From an uncultured Maribacter sp. (GTDB taxonomy: Bacteria; Bacteroidota; Bacteroidia; Flavobacteriales; Flavobacteriaceae), in NCBI RefSeq assembly GCF_947496775.1, contig NZ_CANMDU010000014.1, forward strand, positions 1-64,000: a stretch of 64,000 nucleotides of DNA. The letters run 5' to 3'. Of the stretch, positions 1,983 to 49,698 are shown piece after piece. The notes under the pieces are model-generated. The model made no database searches. It was not told the origin of the DNA and saw only the letters and a program-made list of their open reading frames with translations. A program made the position numbers and the translations under genes. The stretch's first letter is position 1, and every line of letters begins with the position of its first letter.

Positions 1983-2342
1983 ATGGCTAAAAATGAACGA
2001 GGAGTTATTAAGTTAACAAAAGAAGGAGATGATTCGGGTTCAAAAATTGAAGCAATTAAGAATTTAATTTTTGGGGAGAATATAAAAGCGTACGAGTCAG
2101 AGTTCGAGATATTAAAACAAGATATCCTAGACAAGAAAAAGACTTTAGAAGATTTATTAGAAGAGGTTAAAGCAGATTTGTCTAAGACTATAGATACTAT
2201 TGCTACAGATGTTAATGTTAGAATTACAGAGCTCCAAGAGAATTTAGAAGCCAAGGTAGAGGATTTGGACGATCGTGCTGTGAAGAAAGAAATGTTAGGA
2301 GAATTATTCAAAGAGTTAGGAGATAAAATAGGGAAACAATAA
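1983..2342 (+). CDS. Coiled-coil protein, first gene of the small-GTPase operon
   Basis: Charged 119-aa protein without signal peptide or membrane segment. Residues about 35-115 are predicted by eye to be one long helix or coiled coil, rich in Glu, Lys and Leu. I do not recognise the family. It is 22 nt upstream of the 286-aa gene and in the same orientation, so it most likely belongs to the GTPase operon, perhaps as an adaptor. The motif FGENIKAYESEFEILKQDI resembles the start of the next protein (FTDDRAYAEKIAKRIEILEQ), suggesting the two share a related N-terminal helical segment. Confidence 0.75.
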   Translation: MAKNERGVIKLTKEGDDSGSKIEAIKNLIFGENIKAYESEFEILKQDILDKKKTLEDLLEEVKADLSKTIDTIATDVNVRITELQENLEAKVEDLDDRAVKKEMLGELFKELGDKIGKQ

Positions 2343-2364
2343 ACTGTTATTAATCTTCCCTGTA

Positions 2365-3225
2365 ATGAACCAGCCAGATAAATTAGAAATACTAAAAGAT
2401 ATTTTGTTTACGGACGATCGTGCGTATGCAGAAAAAATTGCAAAAAGGATTGAAATTCTGGAGCAAAATATTGAGGATAGTGAACGTTTATCTGCTCAAG
2501 TAAATCCTATTGTAAACAAAGAGCTTAAAGAATTTGTAGAAAATATTCCCCATACCTTAGGGCCGACTATAACAGAAACTTTAAAGGAAGAAATTAAAAA
2601 CCATAAAGATGAAGTGGTAGATGCGTTGTATCCTGTGTTAGGTAAAATGATTAAAAAATATGTAGCTCAAGAAATGAAAATGCTTTCGGAGTCTATAAAC
2701 AATCAACTATCTAAAAGGTTTTCCGCCAAAGGAATGTCCAGAAGGTTCAGGTCTTGGTTTGGTAACGTAAGTGAAGAAGAATTACTATTAAGCGAAATAT
2801 CTTCGGCCAAAATTGAGCAAGTTCTCTTAATAGAAAAAGATTCGGGAATATTAAAAGGCAGTTTTTCTAAAAGAAAAACGATAGATGAGGATATGATTTC
2901 TGGTATGCTTACCGCAATAAAGTCTTTTGTAGAAGATGCATTTAATCAAAAAAATCAGAATTTAGAATTAATAGAATATGAGCTGTATCAAATACACCTA
3001 CAAAGTTTTGTAACCCATTACATAGCAGTGGTAATATCTGGTAATTACGATTTAAAATCAAAAAATAAAGTACAAGATATTATATTTAATTTCTACAATA
3101 GTTTTATGGCAATGAACTTAGATTTGGTATTTGCATCTTCTAGTATAGAAATATCTGCAGAGCCAGTAACTAGAAAAAAAATAGAGAAAGAATTATCTAA
3201 AAGCTTTGGCAATGAGCAAATCTAA
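2365..3225 (+). CDS. Helical protein with roadblock/LC7-like domain
   Basis: Cytosolic-looking 286-aa protein. Residues 1-125 are helical. A basic linker at about 121-131 (GMSRRFRSWFG) leads to an alpha/beta region at about 148-260 with VLLIEKDSG and DEDMISGMLTAIKSF. The latter resembles roadblock/LC7-type domains, and the whole layout matches the N-terminal part of OmpA-family proteins of cyanobacteria and proteobacteria that carry GLxWRLEAL and VSGMLTAIQDFVRDSF. Here the usual C-terminal OmpA domain is absent. The gene overlaps the small GTPase gene by 14 nt. Roadblock proteins such as MglB regulate small GTPases, so a GAP or effector role is inferred. The domain call is from memory of the family. 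Confidence 0.75.
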   Translation: MNQPDKLEILKDILFTDDRAYAEKIAKRIEILEQNIEDSERLSAQVNPIVNKELKEFVENIPHTLGPTITETLKEEIKNHKDEVVDALYPVLGKMIKKYVAQEMKMLSESINNQLSKRFSAKGMSRRFRSWFGNVSEEELLLSEISSAKIEQVLLIEKDSGILKGSFSKRKTIDEDMISGMLTAIKSFVEDAFNQKNQNLELIEYELYQIHLQSFVTHYIAVVISGNYDLKSKNKVQDIIFNFYNSFMAMNLDLVFASSSIEISAEPVTRKKIEKELSKSFGNEQI

Positions 3226-3703
3226 AAAAATTGTTGTTCTTGGGCATTTTGGAGTAGGCAAAACTTCTTTAATTAGAAGGTTTGTAAGTAACAGTTTTTC
3301 GGATAAATACTTGGTATCTATAGGAGTTCATATTACAAAAAAAGTAGTGGAAATTTCGCCAACCGAAAGCCTATCCTTTGTAATTTGGGATTTAGAAGGT
3401 ACAGATGAAATAGATACCATAAGAGATGCATACCTTTTAGGAACCCATGGTGCTTTATTTGTTTTTGATGTATCTAGGCCATCTACATTTCAGAATTTAA
3501 AGGAAGACTTAAAAATAGTAACTGCTAAAATGCCCAAAGTTCCAGTATTAATTATTGGTAATAAGATAGATTTGGTGGTGGAAAAGGAACTCAAAGAGCT
3601 ATTAAAAGAGCATAATATTGACTATAATTTTTTAACAAGTGCTAAAACTGGAAGTACTGTAGATACAGCATTTTTAGAATTAGCCAAAGAATTAAATGTC
3701 TAG
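3212..3703 (+). CDS. Rab/Ras-like small GTPase
   Basis: Single-domain GTPase of 163 aa from the ATG at 3212; an in-frame TTG at 3206 is less likely. Motifs: P-loop GHFGVGKT (11-18), switch I SIGVH (36-40), G3 DLEG (60-63), G4 NKID (117-120) and G5 TSAK (142-145). It resembles eukaryotic Rab proteins more than translation GTPases. Oddities: Phe at the Ras Gly12 position, Ser36 at the switch I Thr position, and Thr64 where Ras has catalytic Gln61. There is no C-terminal Cys for lipidation. It overlaps the LC7-like gene upstream (14 nt) and the kinase gene downstream (8 nt), so the three are almost certainly translated together. Confidence 0.9.
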   Translation: MSKSKKIVVLGHFGVGKTSLIRRFVSNSFSDKYLVSIGVHITKKVVEISPTESLSFVIWDLEGTDEIDTIRDAYLLGTHGALFVFDVSRPSTFQNLKEDLKIVTAKMPKVPVLIIGNKIDLVVEKELKELLKEHNIDYNFLTSAKTGSTVDTAFLELAKELNV

Positions 3704-5231
3704 TTTTAAAAAGTACAGTCAGGAATTTATTACTAAAAATCTGCATTTTTATTTAGTAGACTTTAAAGGGCTAGTAGTAGATAGTAATGCCTCTTTTATG
3801 CCAAGGGTAGTTAATAAAAACATTACCAGTATTCATCCGTTTTTTGAGTGTTTTTCTTCTTTTGCAGATTCTTTAGAAAAAGAAATAGTTTTTAATTGTG
3901 TGCATTTAGAAACAAATGAAAAACTATTTATTACAGATGTGCAATTTGTTAGAAAAGAGAAAGAAGTTTTAGTTGTTATTCAAGATTTTACACAGCATTA
4001 TACCACATACCAAGAGGTGGCACAAGCACGGAATGAGTCTATAATTAACTCGGAACTTATTGTATTAAAGAATAAGGAACTTCAAGAAAGAGAAGAGTTT
4101 AAAAATAGTTTTATTCAAAACTTTAGTCATGAGCTTAGAAATCCGTTAACGAGTATAATATCATTAACTAAATTACTTGCAGAAACCGACTTAATAGGAC
4201 CGCAAAAAGAGATGATTAATTTTTTATTAGAGTCTAACTCTAATTTAAAATTAATGCTAGAAGATGTGCTTAGTATAAGTACAATAGCGTCTAACAAACT
4301 ACAATTACAAGAAAAAGCCTTTAACCTAAACAAGCTAATTAATTTGCTAGAGTTTACCTATACTGCAAAAGCAAAACAAATAGGAGTAGAGTTTTCTTTA
4401 AAAACAATTGGTAAAATACCCGAAATTGTAGAAGGAGACAGATTAAGACTTTTCCAAGTACTTACTAATCTTTTAGATAATGCCTTAAAATTTACCGAAG
4501 AAGGCAGTGTTTCTTTATTAGTATCGCTAAACCAAACAAGAGCTAATAAAGCAAATATTAGGTTTTTGGTAGAAGACACGGGTATAGGTATTCCCGAAAA
4601 GGACCAGGAAAGTATTTTCGAAAGTTTTAAGCAACTTAATAATTGCGGTAAAACAGATGGAACAGGTTTAGGGCTCGCTATAGTCTCTGGTTTGCTACAA
4701 AAGATGGGAAGTAAAATTAAAGTAGAATCTGTAGTAGGCAAAGGAACAAAGTTCTTTTTTGATATTACTTTTAAAATTCCTTTAAAAACCAAGAAAACGG
4801 TGGTTTCTAAAAATATAGATAAAGAGCTGTTAAGTGCTATTAAATCTAAAAATATAAAGAGATTTAAATTACTTATTGTAGAAGATGACGAACAGGTACA
4901 AACTGTACTTTTTAAAGTATTAATAAATACAGATTGTTTTTATATTGACCTCATTAACGATGGTTCTAAGGTTTTGCAAGAAGTAGTTAATAATTCGTAT
5001 GATCTTATATTAATGGATGTAAATCTTCCTAATGTGTTAGGAAATCATGTAGCAAGACTCATTAGAGATTTTCCTATGGATAGCATAAATAAAATACCAA
5101 TAATAGGATTAACAGCAAATGTATTTAATAATCAAGAAAAAGGATACATTAAAGATGGTATGAATGCGGTAGTAAGCAAGCCTTTTGACACAGAAAATCT
5201 ATTAGAAACTATTCTTAGACATTTAAAATAG
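3696..5231 (+). CDS. Hybrid sensor histidine kinase with receiver domain
   Basis: Soluble 511-aa kinase. Residues 1-100 are a small PAS-like sensor domain ending in VVIQDFTQ, and about 105-138 a coiled coil. HisKA follows with the phosphoacceptor His145 (FSHELRNP), then HATPase_c with DNALKF, DTGIGIP and GTGLGLAI. A C-terminal receiver starts at about 393 (LLIVEDDE) with phosphoacceptor Asp441 in LMDVNLP and the conserved Lys in SKPFD. No transmembrane helix is visible. The start codon lies inside the GTPase gene (8-nt overlap), which points to one functional unit in which the GTPase module may set kinase activity. No DNA-binding partner regulator is encoded nearby. Confidence 0.92.
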   Translation: MSSFKKYSQEFITKNLHFYLVDFKGLVVDSNASFMPRVVNKNITSIHPFFECFSSFADSLEKEIVFNCVHLETNEKLFITDVQFVRKEKEVLVVIQDFTQHYTTYQEVAQARNESIINSELIVLKNKELQEREEFKNSFIQNFSHELRNPLTSIISLTKLLAETDLIGPQKEMINFLLESNSNLKLMLEDVLSISTIASNKLQLQEKAFNLNKLINLLEFTYTAKAKQIGVEFSLKTIGKIPEIVEGDRLRLFQVLTNLLDNALKFTEEGSVSLLVSLNQTRANKANIRFLVEDTGIGIPEKDQESIFESFKQLNNCGKTDGTGLGLAIVSGLLQKMGSKIKVESVVGKGTKFFFDITFKIPLKTKKTVVSKNIDKELLSAIKSKNIKRFKLLIVEDDEQVQTVLFKVLINTDCFYIDLINDGSKVLQEVVNNSYDLILMDVNLPNVLGNHVARLIRDFPMDSINKIPIIGLTANVFNNQEKGYIKDGMNAVVSKPFDTENLLETILRHLK

Positions 5232-5447: not shown

Positions 5448-5600
5448 ATGGCAGATGTACCTTATTTATCGGAAGTACTTTTTATTATAAGCGTGATTAT
5501 ATTTTTAATTGCTTTGTATTTGGTAATCCCAGTATTAGCGTATGATTATAAAAAGCAGTCAAAAGAAAAAAAAAATAGATATAAAAATAATATAAGATAA
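5448..5600 (+). CDS. Small single-pass membrane protein (50 aa)
   Basis: A 50-codon ORF starting with ATG at 5448 and ending with TAA at 5600. A hydrophobic segment spans about residues 9-31 (SEVLFIISVIIFLIALYLVI) and is followed by a Lys/Arg/Asn-rich tail, giving a typical N-out, C-in single-pass design. It lies alone between the kinase operon and the thioredoxin operon. The ORF is short but its composition is not random; no homolog is recognised. Confidence 0.45.
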   Translation: MADVPYLSEVLFIISVIIFLIALYLVIPVLAYDYKKQSKEKKNRYKNNIR

Positions 5601-5707
5601 GGCGATGCGAACACTAACCATTAATTTATCTAGAATTAACTAAGAAATCGGAATACATAAATTTAGGTATCGGGTAAAATATTTTGATATTTTTAGTTAA
5701 CATGGAA

Positions 5708-5732
5708 GGGTCTTTTTTAAAGACCCTTTTTT
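5708..5732 (+). terminator. Intrinsic terminator
   Basis: An 8-bp stem (GGGTCTTT / AAAGACCC) with a 3-nt loop is followed by TTTTTT. It lies 108 bp past the 50-aa ORF, so that ORF's transcript has a fairly long 3' end or there is a short non-coding transcript here. The rest of 5601-5978 shows no supported gene. Confidence 0.75.
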
Positions 5733-5978
5733 CTGTGTAGAAGCAAATCATCTTACCAAGTTCTATGGGGTATACAAGACATGTTTTTCCTCTTTTAGTG
5801 TAAAACATCTGTGTATTAATTGTACAGAAATAATAAACATAAGATAATTAAAAGCTAACTTACGTAAGTCTTCTTATTTTTGTTTGTAAGTGGCACAATT
5901 TTATAAATCTCTACTATAAACATACAGATTGTACTTTTATGGTGCAGTATTTGTAAACTATAATATAAAATATGGTTA

Positions 5979-45876: not shown

Positions 45877-47211
45877 ATGAGACCATTTTTAAAACATTTA
45901 GGCAGGTCCCTTTTTATAGGGACCTGTATATATATCATTGTTCTTGGTATTTATTATGTATTGGGAGATTTAGGAAATGAGTTTTCTCTAGAAACGGCCT
46001 GGACTCAATATTGGCATAATATGATTTATGCCCTGATATTATATTTTATTAATGCCTATTGGATACAGTATCTTTTAGATAATTATAAAAGTAGTTTGTT
46101 TACTATAAAAAGATTTTTGATAGCAATTTCGGGAAACATTTTACTCTCCTTAGTTGCTATTTTTATATCGGAACTAATATTATCTGTAGGGATATACAAT
46201 GTGCCATTTTCTGATTTTTTGCATGATCAAAATTTTAAAGGTTATAAGTATTCCATGCTTATTGCGATTGTTATTTCCTTAGTATTTTATGCGATATGGT
46301 ATTATAAATACAGGCAGGAAAATAAGGTTAAAGAGCAAAAAATAATTGCAGGAACAGCTTCTGCAAAGTTTGATGCTTTAAAAAATCAACTAGATCCACA
46401 TTTTTTATTTAATAGTTTAAACGTCTTAACAAGTTTAATAGAAGAAGACCCATACCAGGCTCAGAAATTTACCACTTCCTTATCTAAAGTCTATAGATAT
46501 GTTCTAGAACAGAAGAACAAAGATTTAGTGTCTGTAGATGAAGAATTAAATTTTGCTAAAACCTACATTAAATTATTAAAAATGAGGTTTGAGGATAGTA
46601 TAATTTTAGATATACCAGATAGTTGTTCTGATCCCGAAGCTAAAATTGTGCCTTTGTCTTTACAATTACTGCTAGAAAATGCAGTAAAGCACAATGTAGT
46701 TACTGCAGATAAGCCATTGTCTATAAGAGTTTTTGAAGAAGAAGGAAACCTTTGCGTATCCAACAATATTCAAGAAAAAAGAGTGGTTAAAAAAAGTAGT
46801 GGAGTTGGGCTAGTTAATATTCAAGAGCGCTATGGTATTTTAACAGACAGAAGAGTTGTAATAGATAAAGCCGCTTCGGTTTTCAGTGTACAATTACCTA
46901 TGCTTACTAAAAAGGTAACGGTAATGGAAGAGCAAGAGTCGTATATAGAAGATAAAAGATATCAAAAAGCAAAAGAGCGGGTAGAGGCAATAAAAGGTTT
47001 TTATGGTAACTTAATAGCGTATTGTATTATTATACCAATGCTTGCAATTTTAAATTATAATACAACCAGTTTCCCATGGATAATTTTTCCAACTTTAGGA
47101 TGGGGGTTTGGTGTTGTTGTTCATGGTATGGAGGCATTTGGTTACAATCCACTTTGGGGGAAAAATTGGGAAGAACGAAAGTTAAGAGAGTATATGGAGG
47201 ATAAGGAATAA
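45877..47211 (+). CDS. LytS-like sensor histidine kinase with C-terminal 2TM domain
   Basis: 444-aa membrane kinase. Four N-terminal helices (about 10-145) precede the HisK_5 domain with phosphoacceptor His175 in QLDPHFLFNSLN, an atypical HATPase domain (LLLENAVKHN, SGVGLVNIQERY), and, at 356-440, a fused 2TM domain (KERVEAIKGFYGNLIAYC ... WEERKLREYM). The 2TM part is the same family as the five genes immediately downstream. The cognate regulator is the LytTR gene at 48943. Confidence 0.92.
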   Translation: MRPFLKHLGRSLFIGTCIYIIVLGIYYVLGDLGNEFSLETAWTQYWHNMIYALILYFINAYWIQYLLDNYKSSLFTIKRFLIAISGNILLSLVAIFISELILSVGIYNVPFSDFLHDQNFKGYKYSMLIAIVISLVFYAIWYYKYRQENKVKEQKIIAGTASAKFDALKNQLDPHFLFNSLNVLTSLIEEDPYQAQKFTTSLSKVYRYVLEQKNKDLVSVDEELNFAKTYIKLLKMRFEDSIILDIPDSCSDPEAKIVPLSLQLLLENAVKHNVVTADKPLSIRVFEEEGNLCVSNNIQEKRVVKKSSGVGLVNIQERYGILTDRRVVIDKAASVFSVQLPMLTKKVTVMEEQESYIEDKRYQKAKERVEAIKGFYGNLIAYCIIIPMLAILNYNTTSFPWIIFPTLGWGFGVVVHGMEAFGYNPLWGKNWEERKLREYMEDKE

Positions 47212-48942: not shown

Positions 48943-49698
48943 ATGAATGTAATTATTATAGAAGATGAAAAACCTGCAGCAAGAAGATTGTCTAGATTGC
49001 TGAGTGAGTTAAATGTTGCTGTATCGGTTATGTTACATTCCGTAGAAGAATCTATTGAATGGTTTCAAGGTAACGAACATCCCGATTTAATTTTTTTAGA
49101 TATTCAGTTATCCGATGGGTTGTCTTTTGAAATTTTTGAAGTTATAGATATTAAGAGCGCCATAATTTTTACAACCGCTTATGACGAATATGCATTGCAA
49201 GCGTTTAAGTTAAATAGCATTGACTATTTGTTAAAACCAATTGATGATGAAGAGTTAGAAGTAGCTGTAAAAAAATATAAAAGTCTAAAACCAAAACCAG
49301 AGAAATTAGCATTAGATTTTGAGGATATAAAAAAGCTTTTAGTTAACCCATTGGAAAGAGAGTACAAAAAGAGATTTACCGCTAGGGTAGGGCAACATTT
49401 AAAAATTATAAATGCAGATGAGGTAGAGTGTTTTTATAGTGAAAATAAAGGTACCTATGCTGCAACTTCAGATGGTAGAAATTACCTCTTGGATATGACT
49501 TTAGAAAATTTGGAAAATGAGCTTGAGCCAAAATCTTTTTTTAGAGTAAGTAGAAAATTTTACGTAAGCATAAATCATATAAAAGATATAGTTTCTTATA
49601 CAAATTCAAGGCTTCAAATCAAGGTAAATAGGTATAATGAGCAAGAAATTATAGTGAGTAGAGAAAAAGTAAAAGACTTTAAGCTTTGGTTGGAGTAG
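48943..49698 (+). CDS. LytTR response regulator
   Basis: 251 aa. Receiver with IIEDEKPAARRL, phosphoacceptor Asp53 in IFLDIQLSDG, TTAYDEYA and YLLKPID. C-terminal LytTR DNA-binding domain from about 145 (FTARVGQHLKIINADEVECF in part, and FRVSRKFYVSINHI). Encoded with the LytS-like kinase at 45877 and probably phosphorylated by it. LytTR proteins bind paired direct repeats about two turns apart; no site was assigned here. Confidence 0.94.
   Translation: MNVIIIEDEKPAARRLSRLLSELNVAVSVMLHSVEESIEWFQGNEHPDLIFLDIQLSDGLSFEIFEVIDIKSAIIFTTAYDEYALQAFKLNSIDYLLKPIDDEELEVAVKKYKSLKPKPEKLALDFEDIKKLLVNPLEREYKKRFTARVGQHLKIINADEVECFYSENKGTYAATSDGRNYLLDMTLENLENELEPKSFFRVSRKFYVSINHIKDIVSYTNSRLQIKVNRYNEQEIIVSREKVKDFKLWLE

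What the first reader, a model, noticed from the sequence alone, without database searches (positions are those of the whole stretch)
1983..5231. Operon joining a Rab-like small GTPase, an LC7/roadblock-like protein, a coiled-coil protein and a hybrid histidine kinase
Four genes are packed with 22, -14 and -8 nt spacing. The GTPase has all five G motifs. The 286-aa protein matches the N-terminal part of OmpA-family proteins from other phyla that I recall near small GTPases, but here without its OmpA domain, so the module appears fully cytosolic. The kinase has its own receiver and no DNA-binding output. Small GTPase plus roadblock regulators set cell polarity in Myxococcus (MglA/MglB); coupling one to a two-component kinase would be a new signalling design. 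The roadblock call and the coupling are inference.
Basis: partly seen in the sequence, partly recalled or inferred. Interest (0 to 1): 0.78.

Follow-up and report, generated by a model that had tools for sequence, protein, structure and literature searches.

The report
Rab-like GTPase operon with longin partner
A flavobacterium carries a four-gene unit in which a Rab-like molecular switch sits beside a partner predicted to have the longin fold of eukaryotic Rab regulators and beside a sensor kinase; the gene unit was described in outline in 2014, but the likely identity of the partner domain appears to be new and can be tested.

Summary
The four genes are real, in the stated order and spacing, and form a conserved unit: in the window plus 18 close loci only these four ORF clusters recur in 18 or 19 of 19, and of 395 genomes drawn over the phylum exactly the same 14 carry the 286-aa protein (B) and the GTPase (C). 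The unit is not a new design: it fits the 'Group 1 Rup' system described from sequence in 2014 (PMC4316618, sections 17-18).
Added here: (1) the unknown domain of B is predicted to be a longin domain; all 50 rows shown of the structural comparison are longin/roadblock-type proteins, led by parts of Rab exchange factors, though the whole model is low-confidence. (2) Of 55 B proteins, 26 short ones lack a membrane helix and 29 long ones have one. (3) Four short-B loci carry a separate anchored, peptidoglycan-binding-type gene. (4) A glutamine just after a PAS domain (D Q110) is invariant in 35 of 35 output proteins, whether kinase, sigma-54 activator or cyclase. The mechanism (B sets C, C-GTP drives D) is inferred; nothing here is biochemistry.

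The parts
1983..2342 (+). gene A, 119 aa, small, no membrane helix, probably coiled-coil; family signature like KIxxIKxLIFGxNIxxYxxEF
   Evidence: found within 6 kb of B in 51 of 55 loci
2365..3225 (+). gene B, 286 aa, helical N-terminal half plus longin-type domain, no membrane helix, no OmpA domain
2809..3216 (+). longin-type domain of B, residues 149-284 (strand-strand-helix-three strands-two helices)
   Evidence: AlphaFold2 model and structural comparison; weak sequence matches to Fuz/Intu longin and TRAPP Bet5
3212..3703 (+). gene C, 163 aa, Ras/Rab-like small GTPase (Group 1 Rup type)
3389..3403 (+). G3 motif of C (DLEGT): Thr64 in place of the catalytic Gln
   Evidence: 0 of 48 readable C proteins have Gln there
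3696..5231 (+). gene D, 511 aa, PAS - HisKA - HATPase - receiver hybrid kinase, no membrane helix
3738..3989 (+). PAS domain of D, residues 15-98
4023..4025 (+). codon of the invariant Gln110 of D, in the helix that follows the PAS domain
   Evidence: 35 of 35 D proteins; helix 99-134
4101..4289 (+). HisKA domain of D (phospho-acceptor His145)
4434..4766 (+). HATPase_c domain of D
4872..5213 (+). receiver domain of D

Best explanation
The operon is a soluble variant of the Group 1 Rup signalling system. C is a Rab-like GTP switch that probably hydrolyses GTP poorly alone because it lacks the G3 glutamine. B, with A as its likely coiled-coil partner, is the regulator that sets the nucleotide state of C through its longin-type domain, most likely as an exchange factor as in Mon1-Ccz1, TRAPP and Fuzzy-Inturned. 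In other lineages B is tied to the envelope through a membrane helix and OmpA domain, or is accompanied by a separate anchored peptidoglycan-binding-type protein; in the window and its 18 close loci neither is found in the operon, so the input is probably cytosolic or comes from another gene. Shown: the genes, their conserved linkage and co-occurrence, the missing G3 Gln, the invariant Q110, the domain layout. Predicted: the longin and PAS folds. Inferred: every interaction, the GEF role, the trans-acting Gln and the direction of signalling.
Against: The B model has mean pLDDT 59 and pTM 0.42; only part of the C-terminal domain reaches 70-84. The longin sequence matches are not significant: best Fuz_longin_1 19.5 bits against a cut-off of 26.1; unrelated families do as well (Staphylokinase E 0.00083 in one member; serine racemase E 0.56 just behind Bet5). 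A fold does not tell GEF from GAP from scaffold. The profile match of B to bacterial roadblock proteins is weak: P 3.5e-4 against one of three clusters, while the unrelated GTPase profile gave P 7e-4 over 15 columns. Q110 could be structural. The N-terminal regions of the three output classes are not detectably homologous. In three genomes B and C are on different contigs, and in five loci a B paralogue stands beside an A-like gene with no GTPase in the stretch read.
Confidence: 0.6

Rival explanations
1. B is the GTPase-activating protein of C (MglB-like role), not an exchange factor; D is a plain effector and Q110 is a structural residue at the PAS-helix joint.
Against: The top structural matches are longin parts of Rab GEFs, and longin-type matches cover the C-terminal helices that roadblock-type matches do not. 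The invariant Gln found is in D; no column of the B alignment A6 is listed as an invariant Gln.
Confidence: 0.25
2. The kinase is upstream: D senses a signal with its PAS domain and, by phosphorylation, sets B or A and thereby C; C is the output, as proposed for the conservons.
For: Published conservon models put the kinase upstream of the GTPase state (passages; section 18 of the 2014 paper).
Against: The fourth gene is exchanged between lineages for sigma-54 activators and cyclases, which are outputs, while Q110 stays; D carries its own receiver.
Confidence: 0.12
3. The genes only share a transcript and do not act together.
For: No interaction has been shown here, and the 2014 paper states that no Rup interaction had been characterised.
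Against: The gene set recurs over distant classes and phyla; B and C are in exactly the same 14 of 395 genomes; only these four clusters are conserved in 18 or 19 of 19 close loci.
Confidence: 0.03

Closest known systems
Group 1 Rup systems (Wuichet and Sogaard-Andersen 2014, PMC4316618)
   Same: Four genes: coiled-coil protein, unknown domain often with membrane helix and OmpA, GTPase without G3 Gln, output protein with an invariant N-terminal Gln (sections 17-18).
   Different: Here B has no membrane helix or OmpA and the output is a soluble hybrid kinase. The paper calls the B domain unknown and does not name a fold for the N-terminal region of the output in the text I read; here they are predicted to be longin and PAS. 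Sigma-54 activator and cyclase outputs and a separate peptidoglycan-binding-type gene are seen in related loci.
Actinobacterial conservons (CvnA-D)
   Same: Operon of histidine kinase, roadblock-type protein, unknown protein and Ras-like GTPase.
   Different: Conservon kinases have membrane helices and HAMP and the GTPase is of MglA type; here the kinase is a soluble PAS hybrid, B is longin-like and not a Pfam Roadblock match.
MglA/MglB of Myxococcus xanthus
   Same: Small GTPase with a regulator of the same core fold.
   Different: C matches the Ras/Rab side best; B has no Roadblock match; the G3 Gln is missing in C; no evidence of a polarity role.
Longin parts of eukaryotic Rab GEFs (Mon1-Ccz1, Fuzzy-Inturned, TRAPP Bet5-Trs23)
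   Same: Predicted longin fold paired with a Rab-like GTPase.
   Different: Bacterial, one longin-type gene in the operon, output is two-component signalling; exchange activity untested.

Membership tests
Group 1 Rup system | Ras-superfamily small GTPase with eukaryote-like G1-G5 motifs | tested here: met
   Pfam Ras 3.2e-32; motifs GHFGVGKT, SIGV, DLEGT, NKID, TSAK
Group 1 Rup system | G3 catalytic Gln absent | tested here: met
   Thr64; 0 of 48 readable C proteins have Gln
Group 1 Rup system | neighbouring gene for a coiled-coil cytoplasmic protein | tested here: inconclusive
   A is conserved (51 of 55) and has no membrane helix; its coiled-coil nature rests on sequence look and weak Pfam matches, no coiled-coil program was run
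Group 1 Rup system | neighbouring gene with a conserved domain, often followed by membrane helix and OmpA | tested here: met
   domain shared with OmpA-type members; helix and OmpA absent in the window, which the paper's 'often' allows
Group 1 Rup system | output gene (kinase or c-di-GMP enzyme) with an invariant Gln in its N-terminal region | tested here: met
   kinase domains; Q110 in 35 of 35. That it is the same Gln as in the paper's logo was not checked, the figure is not held
Group 1 Rup system | place in the published Rup tree | not tested
   no tree with the published sequences was built
longin domain | fold: strand-strand-helix-three strands-helix-helix | tested here: met
   predicted model and structural matches; model confidence is low overall
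longin domain | sequence match over a curated cut-off | tested here: not met
   best match seen: Fuz_longin_1 E 0.0012, 19.5 bits against cut-off 26.1, in L067; the window's own B has none
longin domain | binding to a small GTPase | not testable with these tools
   only gene linkage is shown
Roadblock/LC7 (PF03259), MglB | sequence match to PF03259 | tested here: not met
   no PF03259 match in the window's genome at E 0.01 (the control rang in 3 of 14 genomes); absent from the full list of 25 families for 49 B domains at E 1
Roadblock/LC7 (PF03259), MglB | core fold | tested here: met
Actinobacterial conservon | membrane-bound HAMP histidine kinase next to a Roadblock protein | tested here: not met
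   D has no membrane helix and no HAMP match; B has no Roadblock match

The most novel reading that the evidence does not exclude
Bacteria have their own Rab-type switch with a longin exchange factor: B is a bacterial longin GEF for a Rab-like GTPase, and the PAS-helix glutamine of the output protein acts as the missing catalytic residue, so that one GTPase module plugs into kinase, sigma-54 or cyclase outputs. The pairing of Rab-like GTPases with longin regulators would then be older than, or have arisen apart from, eukaryotic membrane traffic.
Probability: 0.3. Interest if true: 0.82.

Novelty: new variant of a known kind. Interest (0 to 1): 0.56.

Why it matters
Group 1 Rup systems were a sequence-only prediction in 2014, and I found no experimental follow-up in the library searched (most subscription journals are not held). 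A predicted longin fold for the unknown domain and a PAS fold for the output's N-terminal region give the system a concrete biochemical model with small soluble proteins. It also bears on the origin of eukaryotic Rab regulation: a 2012 analysis derives eukaryotic longin domains from prokaryotic MglB-like domains (passages), and the 2014 paper proposes that eukaryotic Ras-superfamily GTPases come from ancestral Rup GTPases (abstract passage). A longin-type protein in an operon with a Rup GTPase connects the two proposals.

Tried and rejected
Roadblock as the exact family of B: no PF03259 match in the complete lists nor in the genome; one search shows only 25 of 51 families and cannot be used for absence. 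A homology of A and B through the shared motif (LExIRxILFG-like): hhalign P 6e-4 but probability 28% over 34 columns, left open. Direct homology of the D N-terminal regions of the three output classes by hhalign: local-alignment probabilities 0.3-5.5%, P 0.007 at best, not established; Q110 is what lines up. A structure of A or of a B-C complex was not run: two jobs only, single chains only. Disjointness from Roadblock genomes: no handle is shared between the 14 B/C genomes and the 14 of 198 Roadblock genomes, but not all B/C genomes are shown to be in that draw, so nothing is built on it. The roadblock set for hhalign was taken from ORFs at 20 loci and its two small clusters may hold wrong-frame ORFs.

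Rows left out: the 55 loci leave out second copies of the same genome place and the five B paralogues without GTPase (L029-L033, read again as L039 and L040); several of the 55 lie on short contigs (for example L112, L115, L119, L121). The membrane-helix line (hydropathy 1.85) was set by me. The 35 D proteins (34 loci; L083 gives two) leave out close copies among L004-L021, L056, L084, L085, truncated contigs and loci without C beside B; the script wrote Met as first residue, so Met1 says nothing. The kinase control is rough: 16 hits, two not read, one is D itself, and the linker was found by a simple pattern.
Full report
What is there. The window begins at base 1 of contig C14 of a 3.96 Mb, 69-contig genome. 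C is a Ras/Rab-like GTPase (Pfam Ras 3.2e-32; nearest solved chains Ypt7 and Rab1). A Roc-family search of the whole genome gave 3 matches, with C the only one over the curated cut-off. D is a HisKA-HATPase-receiver protein without a DNA-binding domain. A and B match no Pfam family over its cut-off.

It is a conserved unit. A scan of genome contigs with B gave 19 loci: 18 close ones (61-69% identity; titles Maribacter, Cellulophaga, Croceitalea, Flavobacteriaceae and less precisely placed Bacteroidetes MAGs) and one Cyclobacteriaceae MAG at 44%. tblastn finds A, B, C and D in all 18 of the former, in the same order; C of L020 comes in two pieces and the D frame is broken in L006, L007 and L016. 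Clustering the ORFs of 90 aa or more in the window and these 18 loci, only four clusters occur in 18 or 19 of 19 loci, and these are A, B, C and D; the next is in 8. B is there by construction, the other three are not. Farther out, the profile of B hits 14 of 395 genomes drawn over the phylum and the profile of C at E 1e-15 hits exactly the same 14, from 11 genera. In 11 of the 14, B and C are side by side; in three of one genus (G207, G225, G312) they are on different contigs, and there C stands beside a gene with a sub-cut-off cyclase match and a kinase gene. In 55 distinct B loci A is within 6 kb in 51 and C in 49. Outside the phylum, plasmids of Mesorhizobium, Rhizobium (two records) and Nostoc match B; three of these four were read and show A, OmpA-type or long B, C and an output gene. 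Against the pattern: in the order search (10 of 196 genomes) five loci of one genus carry a B paralogue beside a long gene that is A-like by eye, with no GTPase or kinase of these families in the stretch read (3.7 kb for the five, 15 kb for two of them). One of these genomes, G067, carries the full unit as well.

It is a known kind. Wuichet and Sogaard-Andersen 2014 (PMC4316618; I read passages and sections 17 and 18) describe Group 1 Rup GTPases, which lack the G3 glutamine, in neighbourhoods of a coiled-coil protein, a protein with an unknown domain often followed by a membrane helix and OmpA, and an output protein (typically a c-di-GMP enzyme or a histidine kinase) with an invariant glutamine in its N-terminal region. 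The window fits these points, save that the coiled-coil nature of A was not tested by a program and B has no helix or OmpA. The same paper and a 2026 paper on conservons (passages) show that GTPase-kinase operons were known.

The GTPase. In 48 of 48 readable C proteins from the 55 loci the residue in the place of Ras Gln61 is Thr (20), Glu (20), Ser (3), Asp (3), Pro (1) or Gly (1), never Gln; one C was not readable there and six loci have no C nearby. In the window it is Thr64 (WDLEGTDE).

Where the membrane part went. The 29 long B proteins among the 55 (388-1021 aa as read, some cut by contig ends) have a strong hydrophobic stretch; the 26 short ones (268-289 aa) do not. In alignment A6 11 of 23 members match OmpA (which does not name them) and 11 of 23, the long ones, have the helix; OmpA was seen by name in L055, L058, L109 and L111. 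In four short-B loci (L022, L036, L037, L067) the gene just upstream of A encodes a protein with an N-terminal hydrophobic stretch and a Pfam peptidoglycan-binding domain (scanned in two of the four, E 3e-5 and 2e-11; the four align at 25-30% identity to the first). It was not found in the window's genome (no positive control) or in the 18 close loci. So an envelope-facing part exists as a fused domain, as a separate gene, or not at all in the operon, as here.

How it most likely works. B (with A) sets the nucleotide state of C by its longin domain, GEF more likely than GAP by nearest folds; C-GTP binds the PAS-helix unit of D; Q110 may complete hydrolysis; D autophosphorylates and passes the phosphate to its receiver and perhaps to the genome's stand-alone Hpt protein. 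Each arrow in this chain is inferred from linkage, missing and invariant residues and fold.

Noticed in passing
L039:7175-9173 and L040:7138-9142 (also L030-L032): A paralogous pair in one genus: long gene that is A-like by eye next to a B-like gene, with no GTPase or kinase of these families in the stretch read; in L039 the next gene has a bacterial SH3 match below its cut-off.
   Followed up: partly
L022:4948-5589, L036:6277-6924, L037:8522-9175, L067:8062-8778: Anchored peptidoglycan-binding-type gene directly upstream of A in four loci whose B lacks OmpA.
   Followed up: partly
L055:3902-5656, L057:3395-5179: The output gene is a PAS plus sigma-54 activator; the 2014 paper names c-di-GMP enzymes and kinases as the typical outputs.
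   Followed up: partly
5448-5600: Unlisted 50-aa ORF with one hydrophobic stretch between D and a terminator-like repeat seen by eye near 5706-5734; whether it shares the transcript is not known.
   Followed up: no
L020:6833-7473: The GTPase gene is split by about 100 extra bases in this Cellulophaga MAG; true change or assembly error not known.
   Followed up: no
45877-47211 and 48943-49698: By sequence look, a membrane histidine kinase of LytS type and a LytTR response regulator, unrelated to the finding.
   Followed up: no
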